A stretch of DNA of 64,000 nt from Marmoricola sp. Leaf446 (GTDB lineage Bacteria; Actinomycetota; Actinomycetes; Propionibacteriales; Nocardioidaceae). This document shows, in pieces, positions 29,429-63,039 of the stretch. The stretch spans positions 854,903-918,902 of the forward strand of contig NZ_LMRF01000001.1 of assembly GCF_001424755.1 (NCBI RefSeq). The letters run 5' to 3'. The first letter of the stretch is position 1. Each line of letters starts with the position of its first letter. The translations under genes were made by a program, and so were the position numbers. The notes beneath the pieces are model-generated. The model had not been told where the DNA came from. It saw nothing but the letters and a program-made list of their open reading frames with translations, and ran no database searches.

Positions 29429-29444
29429 TCGAACAGGTGTTCGT
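29429..29444. promoter_or_regulatory. SOS (LexA) box of recA
   Basis: TCGAACAGGTGTTCGT matches the actinobacterial LexA operator TCGAAC-N4-GTTCGA at 15 of 16 informative positions. It lies about 150 nt before recA and immediately before TACCGT (29447-29452), a candidate -10. Confidence 0.85.
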
Positions 29445-29512
29445 ACTACCGTGGGACTCCACAGGCAGGGGTCGCGCCGTGGTTCTCCACAGGCCGGCAG
29501 CAGTCACCGACG

Positions 29513-29535
29513 TTGTCGGTGGTCGCGCCTAACGT
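29513..29535 (+). promoter_or_regulatory. LexA-independent RecA-NDp/PafBC promoter of recA
   Basis: TTGTCGGTG, exactly 8 nt, then TAACGT: a full match to TTGTCRGTG-N8-TAnnnT, the PafBC-dependent damage promoter type. The predicted transcript starts near 29542, giving a leader of about 52 nt before the ATG. Confidence 0.8.
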
Positions 29536-29593
29536 CTGGCAGGACACGAGGTCGACCCGCGCCGCCCGGCGCGACGAGAGGTGAGGAAGTCCC

Positions 29594-30664
<1,071 letters not shown>

Positions 30665-60658: not shown

Positions 60659-61414
60659 CTACATCCGACGCAGGACCGCCGTGACCTTGCCGAGGATGGT
60701 GGCGTAGGTGCCGTCGATCGGGTCGTAGGCGTCGTTGTGCGGCAGCAGCCAGACCTTGCCGTCCTTCTTCTGCAGCGTCTTCACGGTGGCCTCGCCGTCG
60801 AGCATGGCCGCGACGACCTCGCCGTTCTCCGCGTTGGGCTGCTGGCGCACGACCACGTAGTCACCGCTGCAGATGGCGGCGTCGACCATGGAGTCGCCGG
60901 AGACCTCGAGCAGGAACAGCGTCCCGTCGCCGACGAGGGACTTCGGCAGCGGGAAGATGTCCTCGACCCGCTCCTCGGCCAAGATCGGCCCACCCGCCGC
61001 GATGCGACCCACCATCGGGACCATCGTCGCCTCGGGCATGCTGTCGCCGGCTCCGGTGGGGTCGAAGGGCGACTCGTCGGCGCTCGCGATCGCGCGGCGG
61101 GCCGCCATCAGCTCGGGGATGAAGACCTCGAGTGCGCGCGGACGGTTGGGGTCGCGCTTGATGAAGCCCTTCTGCTCGAGCACGCGCAGCTGGTGGGCGA
61201 CGCTGGAGGAGCTCGTCAGGCCCACCAGCTCGCCGATCTCGCGGATGCTGGGCGGGTAGCCGCGCTTCTCGATCGACTCGCGCAGCACGTTGAGGATGCG
61301 CTGCTGGCGAGGGGTGAGGCCGGTGACGTCGGGGGCCGCGTCGGGCAGCTCGGACACGGTGCCTCCCTTCGTGCTGGGGGAGGAACCGGGGGTCTGTGCG
61401 TCTCGCGTCGCCAT
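60659..61414 (-). CDS. lexA: SOS repressor LexA
   Basis: A 251-residue repressor/autoprotease. A winged helix (about 33-95: [23 protein letters not shown]), cleavage site Ala140-Gly141 (GRIAAGGPI), catalytic Ser175 (GDSM) and Lys212 (TVKTL) are visible. Two starts are plausible: the ATG at 61414, exactly 7 nt after TACGGT (leaderless), and a GTG at 61357 after GGGAGG, which would give 232 residues. It is divergent from the LysM gene and has a LexA box at its promoter. Confidence 0.96.
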
Positions 61415-61421
61415 GTGCCGC

Positions 61422-61427
61422 ACCGTA
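61422..61427 (-). promoter_or_regulatory. lexA -10 hexamer
   Basis: TACGGT on the minus strand, 7 nt from the ATG. TTGAAG (61446-61451) lies 18 nt upstream as -35 and overlaps the LexA box. Confidence 0.6.
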
Positions 61428-61447
61428 GTCCAGCCGGGACCACCACT

Positions 61448-61463
61448 TCAAACACCTGTTCGA
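61448..61463. promoter_or_regulatory. SOS (LexA) box of lexA
   Basis: Read toward lexA, TCGAACAGGTGTTTGA matches TCGAAC-N4-GTTCGA with one change. It overlaps the -35 of lexA, so LexA should repress its own gene. Confidence 0.85.
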
Positions 61464-61495
61464 ACCGCGTGTCGCGGCGCGAGCCTGGCTCGTGT

Positions 61496-61511
61496 GCGAA
61501 CGCGTGTTCGA
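61496..61511. promoter_or_regulatory. SOS box upstream of LysM gene (first)
   Basis: GCGAACGCGTGTTCGA has a perfect CGAAC-N4-GTTCG core. Confidence 0.8.
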
Positions 61512-61547
61512 CCAAATGCTTGTCTCGGGGGTCCGCGTGCCCTACCG

Positions 61548-61563
61548 TCGTACAGGTGTTCGA
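61548..61563. promoter_or_regulatory. SOS box upstream of LysM gene (second)
   Basis: TCGTACAGGTGTTCGA differs from the recA/lexA-type box at one position. Confidence 0.75.
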
Positions 61564-61579
61564 TCGAACGTCTCTTCGA
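61564..61579. promoter_or_regulatory. SOS-like box upstream of LysM gene (third)
   Basis: TCGAACGTCTCTTCGA has one mismatch in the right half and directly abuts the preceding box. Confidence 0.6.
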
Positions 61580-61596
61580 ACCCGCTGACGATCCGG

Positions 61597-61619
61597 TTGT
61601 CGGTGGTCGCGGATAGACA
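61597..61619 (+). promoter_or_regulatory. RecA-NDp/PafBC-like promoter of LysM gene
   Basis: TTGTCGGTG (61597-61605), 8 nt, TAGACA (61614-61619). Only the last -10 base departs from TTGTCRGTG-N8-TAnnnT. The predicted leader is about 70 nt. Confidence 0.7.
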
Positions 61620-61695
61620 TCGTTCCAGCACCCGGCAGGGGTCGCCGACCGCGCCGGGTCGCCCGACCCGGCACTTCCCCGAAAGAGGTTGATCG

Positions 61696-62220
61696 ATGAG
61701 CACGCTGAGCATGACCCGCGAGACCGCCCGCACGTCCACCGAGGCCCGAGTCCGGGTCCCGCGTCCGCGTGCGAGCGCCTCCTCGTTCGACTTCACCGCC
61801 CCGGTCCCCGCGGTCGGCCAGGACGACCCGGCCCTGCGCGTCCTCGACGTCCCGAGCACGGCTCGTCCCGCGGCGCGGCTCGTCGCCCCCGTCCCGGAGC
61901 CCCAGCGCCAGGTCCACGTCGCCCGCCCGGTGCGCCTGACCCGTCGTGGTCGGCTCACGGTGACCCTGACCTTCCTCGGGCTCGTGCTGGCGACCATGGT
62001 GGCGCTCGGCGGCAGCTGGGCCGTCGCCTCGCTCGGAAGCGGCGAGCCGGCTCCGGTGCGGGTGGTGGAGGTGCAGCCGGGCGACACGCTCTACGGCATC
62101 GCCTCCTCGCTGGCCGAGCCGGGCGAGGTCCGCGACATGGTCTACCGCATCCAGGAGCTCAACTCGCTGCCCACGGCCACGATCGCCGAGGGCCAGAAGC
62201 TCGCCGTCCCCCGCGGCTGA
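61696..62220 (+). CDS. LysM-domain membrane protein (ChiZ/DivS-like)
   Basis: A 174-residue protein: a positively charged cytoplasmic N-terminus of about 85 residues, one membrane helix (about 86-112) and a LysM peptidoglycan-binding domain at the C-terminus (VQPGDTLYGIASSLAEPG to GQKLAVPRG). Position divergent from lexA and domain layout match M. tuberculosis Rv2719c (ChiZ) and, functionally, DivS: damage-induced cell-division suppressors. AAAGAGG precedes the ATG by 7 nt. Multiple LexA boxes and a PafBC-type promoter lie upstream. Orthology is inferred. Confidence 0.82.
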   Translation: MSTLSMTRETARTSTEARVRVPRPRASASSFDFTAPVPAVGQDDPALRVLDVPSTARPAARLVAPVPEPQRQVHVARPVRLTRRGRLTVTLTFLGLVLATMVALGGSWAVASLGSGEPAPVRVVEVQPGDTLYGIASSLAEPGEVRDMVYRIQELNSLPTATIAEGQKLAVPRG

Positions 62221-62253
62221 GTCATCGGCCCGTCCGCCACGGGCCGGCATGAC
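62221..62253. terminator. Hairpin right after LysM stop codon
   Basis: CGGCCCGT-N5-ACGGGCCG (62226-62233/62239-62246) extended by GTCAT/ATGAC with a 2-nt bulge. It starts on the base after the TGA. Confidence 0.6.
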
Positions 62254-62294
62254 GTGCGACGACCTCCTCGACCCGGGTCGACGCACGGGGGAAG

Positions 62295-62327
62295 CGACGG
62301 GGCGGAGCCACTGGCTCCGCCCCGTCG
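62295..62327. terminator. Strong bidirectional hairpin terminator
   Basis: A perfect 15-bp stem with a 3-nt loop between two convergent genes, 17 nt from the lysoplasmalogenase stop. No long U-run on either side. It can serve both strands. Confidence 0.75.
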
Positions 62328-62343
62328 GTGCGTTCCGGCGCGC

Positions 62344-63039
62344 TCAGTCCGCTCGGGCGCGCGCTGCGCCCTCGGCCAGCAGCAGCTGGGCCGCCGTGTA
62401 GGTCAGCATCACGGCCCTGTCCAGGGCCGGCGAGGCGTCCTCCAGCACGAACGTGCGGGTGGCGAGCAGCGTGTCCGAGAGCAGGAAGGTCCAGGCTCCG
62501 GCGGCGAGGAGGTGGCGTGACCGCGGTGGCAGCGACGCGTCGAGGTGGCCGGCTCGGGCGGCGAGGCCGGCCAGCAGGGCGGCGTACGACACGACGGGCG
62601 CGGCCAGGGCTGCGTCGCGTCTGGCCGCGGCGTACGTCAGGAGGGGGGCGGTGGCGACCCACACGCCTGCGGCGGCACGGGCGCCGTACGACTCCCGCAG
62701 CGGTGGGGGACCGGCCAGATGCTGCAGGCCGTGCAGGGTGGCCGCGTGACCCATGGCGAAGGCCGTCACGCCGCCGAGGAACGAGCGGCGACCGTGCCCG
62801 AGCAGCGCGACGTCCCCGACCCACCCGCCGGCCTGGGCGGCCAGGGTGCTGCGCCGCAGTGGTGACCCGGCGGCGCGGGGATCGGCGACGAACGCCGTCG
62901 CGAGCGTGGGCACGAGCAGCGGCTTGGTGACCCGTCGCAGCCGCCGTGCGCTGGTCGTGCGGCTCCCTGCGGCCCAGGAGTCGACCAGCGCCAGAGCGAC
63001 GTAGCCACGGCGCAGCGTCCGTGCGGTCGCGGTCGACAC
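62344..63039 (-). CDS. Lysoplasmalogenase-like (YhhN/TMEM86) membrane protein
   Basis: A 231-residue membrane protein with seven to eight helices. TKPLLVPTLATAFV, GDVALL, FLGGVTAFAMGHAATLHGL and FLLSDTLLATRTF fit the YhhN/TMEM86 family, whose characterised members hydrolyse lysoplasmalogens. The GTG at 63039 lies 5 nt after the preceding gene's stop, so the two are probably co-transcribed. Confidence 0.82.
   Translation of the reverse strand: MSTATARTLRRGYVALALVDSWAAGSRTTSARRLRRVTKPLLVPTLATAFVADPRAAGSPLRRSTLAAQAGGWVGDVALLGHGRRSFLGGVTAFAMGHAATLHGLQHLAGPPPLRESYGARAAAGVWVATAPLLTYAAARRDAALAAPVVSYAALLAGLAARAGHLDASLPPRSRHLLAAGAWTFLLSDTLLATRTFVLEDASPALDRAVMLTYTAAQLLLAEGAARARAD

What the first reader, a model, noticed from the sequence alone, without database searches (positions are those of the whole stretch)
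61415..61695. Triple SOS box plus PafBC-type promoter before a division-suppressor-like LysM gene
The 281-nt lexA-LysM region holds four LexA-type boxes (61448, 61496, 61548, 61564), two of them abutting, and a TTGTCGGTG-N8-TAGACA element. Seen directly: the boxes and their spacing. Known: TCGAAC-N4-GTTCGA is the LexA site and TTGTCRGTG-N8-TAnnnT the PafBC promoter in mycobacteria. Inferred: two independent damage pathways converge on a cell-division checkpoint, with unusually tight LexA control given three sites on the LysM side.
Basis: partly seen in the sequence, partly recalled or inferred. Interest (0 to 1): 0.7.

Follow-up and report, generated by a model that had tools for sequence, protein, structure and literature searches.

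The report
Split two-switch DNA-damage promoter beside lexA
Between the SOS repressor gene and a predicted cell-division brake of a Nocardioides-type bacterium lie four LexA boxes and one PafBC-type promoter element; dual control of the counterpart gene is already published for the tuberculosis bacterium, but here the two switches sit apart, so that either damage signal alone would likely turn the brake on, whereas in most of the compared relatives with both elements they are fused.

Summary
Four LexA boxes (61448, 61496, 61548, 61564) and TTGTCGGTG-N8-TAGACA (61597) lie between lexA and a divergent LysM gene, beyond chance. The basic idea is not new: in M. tuberculosis lexA has one SOS box, and three further boxes plus a PafBC motif serve the operon on the other side (PMC8151990). 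"Unusually tight" is not supported: 20 of 32 regions of the window's design have four LysM-side boxes, the window three. The comparison adds geometry. Of 153 distinct lexA-LysM regions, 68 have the PafBC-type element right in front of the LexA boxes (one composite promoter); 34, the window included, have it downstream of all boxes (28 in the window's family, 4 Kribbella, 2 elsewhere). In the window's family the boxes instead surround a sigma-A-like -35/-10 (22 of 22 testable; 0 of 4 Kribbella). My reading: one LexA-gated PafBC promoter versus two separable promoters, likely AND-like versus OR-like logic. The layout is shown; binding, transcription starts and division arrest are inferred. The element's -10 lacks the final T in 91 of 103 cases, though 18 of 21 PafBC-type sites in this genome have it.

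The parts
60659..61414 (-). lexA (ATG at 61414; a GTG at 61423 is also possible)
   Evidence: TIGR00498 236.8 bits, above cut-off 110.95; Pfam LexA_DNA_bind and Peptidase_S24
61422..61427 (-). predicted -10 of lexA (TACGGT on the minus strand), close to a leaderless start
   Evidence: read from sequence; inference
61448..61463 (.). LexA box of lexA, TCAAACACCTGTTCGA
   Evidence: score 23.1; a box that begins TCAAAC is present in 141 of 153 regions
61496..61511 (.). LexA box O1, just upstream of the P1 -35, GCGAACGCGTGTTCGA
   Evidence: score 19.7
61520..61525 (+). P1 -35-like TTGTCT, 17 nt before the P1 -10
   Evidence: TTG at this place (within 1 nt) in 22 of 22 testable B-type regions of the window's family, 0 of 4 Kribbella, 3 of 48 A-type. 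Against: the generic consensus scan found no promoter
61529..61544 (.). place where relatives carry a LexA box between P1 -35 and -10; degenerate in the window and in G002
   Evidence: spacer box in 19 of 22 testable B-type regions of the family, 0 of 4 Kribbella, 0 of 48 A-type
61543..61548 (+). P1 -10-like TACCGT, sharing its last T with box O2
   Evidence: TA at this register in 22 of 22 testable B-type regions of the family, 9 of 48 A-type
61548..61563 (.). LexA box O2, over the predicted P1 start, TCGTACAGGTGTTCGA
   Evidence: score 24.2
61564..61579 (.). LexA box O3, abutting O2, TCGAACGTCTCTTCGA
   Evidence: score 18.0; a pair spaced 16 or 17 nt in 108 of 153 regions
61597..61605 (+). 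PafBC-type (-26) element of P2, TTGTCGGTG
   Evidence: conserved TGTCRG core on the LysM strand
61614..61619 (+). P2 -10, TAGACA (no final T)
   Evidence: TAGACA in 25 of the 31 core-positive B-type regions of the lineage
61681..61688 (+). predicted ribosome-binding site GAAAGAGG
   Evidence: read from sequence
61696..62220 (+). LysM gene, 174 aa; predicted membrane helix near residues 87-105, LysM at 125-172
   Evidence: Pfam PF01476 E 1.3e-6; hydropathy

Best explanation
The lexA-LysM gap holds four LexA boxes and one PafBC-type element laid out as two separate predicted promoters of the LysM gene, an upstream one (P1) likely shut by LexA and a downstream one (P2) likely switched on by PafBC, so that either damage signal alone would raise a predicted cell-division inhibitor. 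P1 is a sigma-A-like -35/-10 pair (61520, 61543) with a LexA box just upstream of it and an abutting pair over its start. P2 is the PafBC-type element (61597) with its -10 (61614), starting 17 nt beyond the last box. In most compared relatives that have both signals the PafBC-type element sits directly in front of the LexA boxes, so LexA would also have to leave before PafBC could act; the window's family (apart from Aeromicrobium) and Kribbella have the two apart. The product, a one-helix LysM protein like YneA or ChiZ, would hold back septum synthesis until the DNA is repaired. Shown: sequence elements, spacing, conservation, lineage distribution, PafB in the genome. Inferred: binding, transcription starts, logic, protein role.
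For: Boxes and element beyond chance. In 153 distinct lexA-LysM regions the element core occurs on the LysM strand in 102, on the opposite strand in 4, expected from shuffles 0.8. A-type (composite) 68: in 56 the element starts 21-27 nt before a scoring box, in 12 the next scoring box starts 36-40 nt on, the first box of the pair being too weak. B-type (downstream) 34, including L056 relabelled by hand; 28 are of the window's family, 4 Kribbella, 2 of family f5. Sigma-A-like -35 at the right spacing: 22 of 22 testable B regions of the family, 0 of 4 Kribbella, 3 of 48 A; LexA box in the P1 spacer: 19 of 22, 0 of 4, 0 of 48 (regions without an abutting pair not counted; rows are related, so p-values overstate). 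PafB matches chain 7p5x_AY (1.3e-62; that this is the M. smegmatis PafBC-polymerase structure is recalled) and PafBC 6sj9 (1.2e-41). Of the 29 motif sites whose downstream ORF was listed, 10 chosen as repair-like were checked and carry domains of UvrA, UvrB, UvrC, DnaB, class II ribonucleotide reductase, SbcD, a UvrD-type helicase, a DNA ligase, an exonuclease/GIY-YIG protein and DUF6504; recA was recognised by eye. Dual control of the M. tuberculosis counterpart is published (PMC8151990). PafB contacts a -26 motif and PafBC works with the housekeeping sigma (PMC11804915, passages).
Against: No expression or binding data for this organism. The P2 -10 lacks the final T that 18 of 21 PafBC-type sites in this genome have. 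The generic sigma-70 scan finds no promoter in 61400-61700. P1 -35 TTGTCT is a weak match, and the P1 test fails in all 4 Kribbella regions. Box O3 ends only 17 nt before the PafBC-type element (10 nt in four relatives), so LexA might still hinder P2. A strict AND reading of fused promoters is strained by a cited title saying Rv2719c is damage-inducible independently of RecA (Brooks 2006, seen only in a reference list). 50 of 153 regions show no element core, although PafB was found in 77 of 80 genomes tested. Three window-family regions (L134, L140, L154) fail the core test. Many of the motif's other genome sites lie before genes with no evident repair role.
Confidence: 0.66

Rival explanations
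1. Only the LexA-controlled promoter works here; the PafBC-type element is a decayed remnant, so the LysM gene answers to SOS alone.
For: Its -10 lacks the final T; a few close relatives have lost the strict core (L134, L140, L154).
Against: The element is kept in 32 B-type regions of the lineage while its distance to the ATG varies from 53 to 131 nt in the 31 measured, and 25 of 31 keep TAGACA exactly. TA[GC]A is the usual -10 of this gene's element across the sample (87 of 103), which speaks for constraint rather than decay.
Confidence: 0.17
2. LexA controls both promoters even here: LexA on the abutting pair, so close upstream of P2, also blocks the PafBC/RNA polymerase complex, and induction needs both signals.
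For: The gap from the last box to the element is 17 nt in the window and 10 nt in four relatives.
Against: The gap in 31 B-type regions of this lineage runs from 10 to 79 nt, unlike the 21-27 nt phasing of the 56 direct composite regions; boxes 47-78 nt upstream of a start rarely block it (general knowledge).
Confidence: 0.14
3. The downstream element is not used by PafBC but by another regulator or is a constitutive weak promoter.
For: The consensus was defined in mycobacteria; I saw no PafBC binding data for this family; the -10 differs.
Against: The same motif precedes recA and several repair genes in this genome and PafB is present.
Confidence: 0.08

Closest known systems
lexA-Rv2719c (chiZ) intergenic region of Mycobacterium tuberculosis (PMC8151990; Dullaghan 2002 and Brooks 2006, titles seen in reference lists)
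   Same: lexA has one SOS box; three more boxes and a PafBC motif, pointing away from lexA, serve the operon on the other side, whose first gene is a LysM division gene; dual damage control.
   Different: The relative placement there is not given in the text I read, and no named M. tuberculosis locus was fetched.
mycobacterial recA with a PafBC-dependent and a LexA-controlled promoter (PMC11804915 and PMC8151990, passages)
   Same: Two separate damage promoters, one per pathway; the window's own recA has a LexA box at 29429 and a perfect PafBC motif at 29513.
   Different: One LexA box in the window's recA region, not a cluster; a repair gene, not a predicted division inhibitor.
yneA of Bacillus subtilis and divS of Corynebacterium glutamicum (PMC13396833 and PMC3989709, passages)
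   Same: SOS-induced division inhibitor gene close to lexA; YneA has one membrane helix plus LysM.
   Different: Only LexA control is described in the passages seen; the NCBIfam YneA model is not met by the window protein (36 of 60 bits).

Membership tests
Actinobacterial LexA (SOS) box | dyad TCGAAC-N4-GTTCGA, allowing small deviations | tested here: met
   four sites with one mismatch each; matrix from other sites scores 18.0-24.2
Actinobacterial LexA (SOS) box | bound by LexA, derepressed by damage | not testable with these tools
   needs footprint or ChIP
PafBC-dependent (RecA-NDp) promoter | TTGTCRGTG element | tested here: met
   no mismatch at 61597
PafBC-dependent (RecA-NDp) promoter | 8-nt spacer to the -10 | tested here: met
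   61606-61613
PafBC-dependent (RecA-NDp) promoter | -10 of the form TAnnnT | tested here: not met
   TAGACA; final T also missing in 91 of 103 elements of this gene in the sample. So it is called PafBC-type, not filed as a strict member
PafBC-dependent (RecA-NDp) promoter | pafB and pafC in the genome | tested here: met
   PafB. The second WYL gene lies directly behind it; its PafC identity rests on position and the WYL domain, no structure search was run for it, and NCBIfam names neither
YneA equivalog (NCBIfam NF010723) | curated score cut-off of 60 bits | tested here: not met
   36 bits
[quoted passage not shown]
YneA/ChiZ-like LysM division inhibitors | stops division when induced | not testable with these tools
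   needs expression assay

The most novel reading that the evidence does not exclude
A damage checkpoint gene was rewired in evolution by moving promoter parts: a fused promoter, in which PafBC can fire only after LexA leaves (AND-like), was split in the Nocardioides/Kribbella branch into a LexA-repressed housekeeping-type promoter with up to four operators and a LexA-free PafBC promoter (OR-like), and in Aeromicrobium it was fused again by fitting a PafBC element onto the split type's upstream promoter.
Probability: 0.3. Interest if true: 0.66.

Novelty: new variant of a known kind. Interest (0 to 1): 0.46.

Why it matters
PafBC and LexA are two damage regulators of actinobacteria, and how they are combined at one gene has been worked out in mycobacteria. 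Fused and split layouts of the same gene's promoter in related bacteria offer a natural experiment: does promoter geometry decide whether both signals, or either, start a division block? It may also give a simple reason for an older puzzle. A 2008 footprint study found strongly conserved TCGAAC half-motifs in actinobacterial lexA upstream regions and asked whether LexA binds there as a monomer (PMC2248561, passages); abutting full boxes create such back-to-back half-sites.

Tried and rejected
Chance origin of boxes or element: rejected. RNA element in the leader: no Rfam match up to E 0.1 in 61300-62400. Intrinsic terminator in 61400-61700: none. Presence/absence of pafBC as a test of the element: uninformative, because PafB was found in 77 of 80 genomes chosen from both classes. 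Tandem duplication as the origin of P2: tested by looking for a LexA half-site just behind the P2 -10; the position right behind it has the best half-site identity of 24 offsets (2.84 of 6), but the full-site score is strongly negative (-21.5), so it is only suggestive and not claimed. Polarity of the split: a tree of 84 LexA proteins (34 B, 26 of the A regions, 10 Aeromicrobium-type, 10 of family f2, 4 without core) needs at least 4 A/B changes and leaves the deep Nocardioidaceae branches open; the B regions are not one clade, the Aeromicrobium type is (SH-aLRT 98). NCBIfam had no model for PafB or the second WYL gene. A PDB search with the LysM protein gave only a weak LysM hit, E 0.077. The tally of distances mislabels the 56 direct cases; they were recounted, whose script ended in an error after these counts and was finished. 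After the recount I lowered the novel case from 0.33 to 0.30, because the Kribbella regions fail the P1 test. Paper searches bearing on the layout listed nothing whose title, abstract start or passages seen describe it; this covers only the open-licence library, and I read passages and one section part, not whole papers.

Full report
What is there. The 281-nt gap between lexA (60659-61414, minus) and a divergent LysM gene (61696-62220, plus) holds four LexA boxes at 61448, 61496, 61548 and 61564, the last two abutting, and TTGTCGGTG-N8-TAGACA at 61597. Only five places in the 64 kb window match TCGAAC-N4-GTTCGA with at most one mismatch: these four and one before recA. Looser matches are common everywhere (361 with up to two mismatches in the genome against 212 in the reversed control). 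A matrix made from seven sites outside this gap (one of them the recA site) scores the boxes 23.1, 19.7, 24.2 and 18.0; nothing in the other 61,100 bases scanned reaches 16. In the whole genome TGTCRGTG-N8-TA occurs 21 times, its reversed control 0 times.

The two regulators. lexA is secure. Two adjacent WYL genes lie elsewhere in the genome; the first matches PafB-type chains in the PDB over its whole length (7p5x 1.3e-62; 6sj9, named PafBC, 1.2e-41). The PafBC-type motif with at most one mismatch occurs 36 times (control 0). Downstream ORFs were listed for 29 of these places; recA was recognised by eye, and 10 that looked repair-like were checked: they carry domains of UvrA, UvrB, UvrC, DnaB, class II ribonucleotide reductase, SbcD, a UvrD-type helicase, an ATP-dependent DNA ligase, an exonuclease/GIY-YIG protein and DUF6504. 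Others of the 29 precede genes with no evident repair role. The motif is therefore likely in use here.

Already known. In M. tuberculosis, lexA is served by a single SOS box, while the other three boxes and the PafBC motif serve the operon on the other side (PMC8151990, part 1 of 2 of the discussion; the text prints Rv2019c, Rv2018c and Rv2017c, which I take as misprints, because the legend of its Figure S6, says rv2719c operon). [quoted passage not shown] A review states that several genes have both elements (PMC8223512, passages).

How relatives are built. 163 showed a LysM gene in the held flank and 153 upstream regions were distinct. The element core (TGTC[AG]G, then TA at the right spacing) lay on the LysM strand in 102, on the other strand in 4; 0.8 were expected from dinucleotide shuffles. 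Class A (68): the -10 runs into the LexA boxes, the element starting 21-27 nt before a scoring box in 56 and 36-40 nt before it in 12, where the first box of the pair is too weak to score. Class B (34, one relabelled by hand): the element lies downstream of all scoring boxes. Class C: 1. None: 50. Class B is 28 regions of the window's family (named ones are Nocardioides and Marmoricola), 4 Kribbella and 2 of family f5 (L269, L281). The 10 Aeromicrobium-type regions have the A layout by eye; 8 of the 10 pass the strict core test.

A second promoter. Among regions with an abutting pair, TTG stands at the -35 place 17 nt (within 1) before a -10 that touches the pair in 22 of 22 class B regions of the window's family, 0 of 4 Kribbella and 3 of 48 class A regions, and an extra LexA box fills that spacer in 19 of 22, 0 of 4 and 0 of 48. 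Kribbella therefore shares the downstream element, but its upstream promoter, if any, differs. In the window P1 is TTGTCT (61520) - 17 nt - TACCGT (61543), whose last T is the first base of the box at 61548; the spacer box is degenerate here and in genome G002, whose LexA is 100% identical. Three LysM-side boxes are thus fewer than the four of 20 of 32 class B regions. A generic consensus scan did not score this promoter, so it rests on conservation.

Mechanism. PafBC activates the housekeeping polymerase at promoters where PafB contacts a -26 motif (PMC11804915, passages). In class A the LexA pair would cover the -10/start region of that same promoter, so LexA must leave and PafBC must arrive. 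In class B LexA would shut a separate sigma-A-like promoter, and PafBC would drive another one starting beyond the boxes; either signal should suffice. The AND/OR wording is inference, and the mycobacterial title quoted above warns that LexA need not fully block PafBC-driven expression.

An unexplained constancy. The -10 of this gene's element is TA[GC]A.. in 87 of 103 cases and ends in T in only 12 of 103, while 18 of 21 PafBC-type sites in the window's genome end in T. Of 31 core-positive class B regions of the lineage, 25 have TAGACA exactly. It is kept where a LexA box follows and where none does. A weak -10 that stays silent without PafBC is my guess; it also suggests that P2 descends from the fused promoter rather than having been recruited from elsewhere. 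Eight of 8 core-positive Aeromicrobium-type regions, but only 1 of 40 other class A regions with a pair, have the -10 register of the split type's P1, which hints that Aeromicrobium re-fused. The LexA tree does not resolve the order (at least 4 changes).

Protein. [quoted passage not shown] It scores below the YneA model's cut-off, so I say it likely works like YneA, not that it is one.

Verdict. Real, functional-looking, and in its main idea already known from mycobacteria; the split geometry and its lineage distribution were in none of the papers that my searches listed, as far as I read them, and are the part worth testing.

Noticed in passing
61614-61619 and the same place in relatives: The -10 of the LysM gene's PafBC-type element is conserved as TAGACA/TAGAAC-like and lacks the final T in 91 of 103 cases, unlike 18 of 21 PafBC-type sites in this genome.
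   Followed up: partly
L059, L061, L065, L066, L064, L068: In several Nocardioidaceae other genes (a short-chain-dehydrogenase-like ORF and in some a membrane protein ORF, both recognised by eye) sit between lexA and LysM; the box cluster stays with LysM and one box stays with lexA.
   Followed up: partly
L285-L314 (family f2, same order): Third layout: TGTCAG occurs on the LysM-side strand in 25 of 30 loci (opposite strand 2), mostly some 40-110 nt before a LexA box, ahead of a small gene without a detectable LysM domain.
   Followed up: partly
L048/L002 (G000:C4:196966-197012): Own-genome near-fused example before a DUF6504 gene: TTGTCGGCG-N8-TACCTT followed by a perfect LexA box that starts 31 nt after the start of the element.
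   Followed up: no
window 29429-29594: recA (recognised by eye) has a LexA box and, 84 nt further, a perfect PafBC motif: a second split two-element gene in the same window.
   Followed up: no
G000:C1:920691 (about 1.8 kb beyond the window end): A class II ribonucleotide reductase gene with a one-mismatch PafBC-type motif upstream lies near the lexA-LysM pair.
   Followed up: no
L281, L269 (family f5): Two regions outside the Nocardioides/Kribbella branch also have the element downstream of the scoring boxes, possibly independent splits.
   Followed up: no
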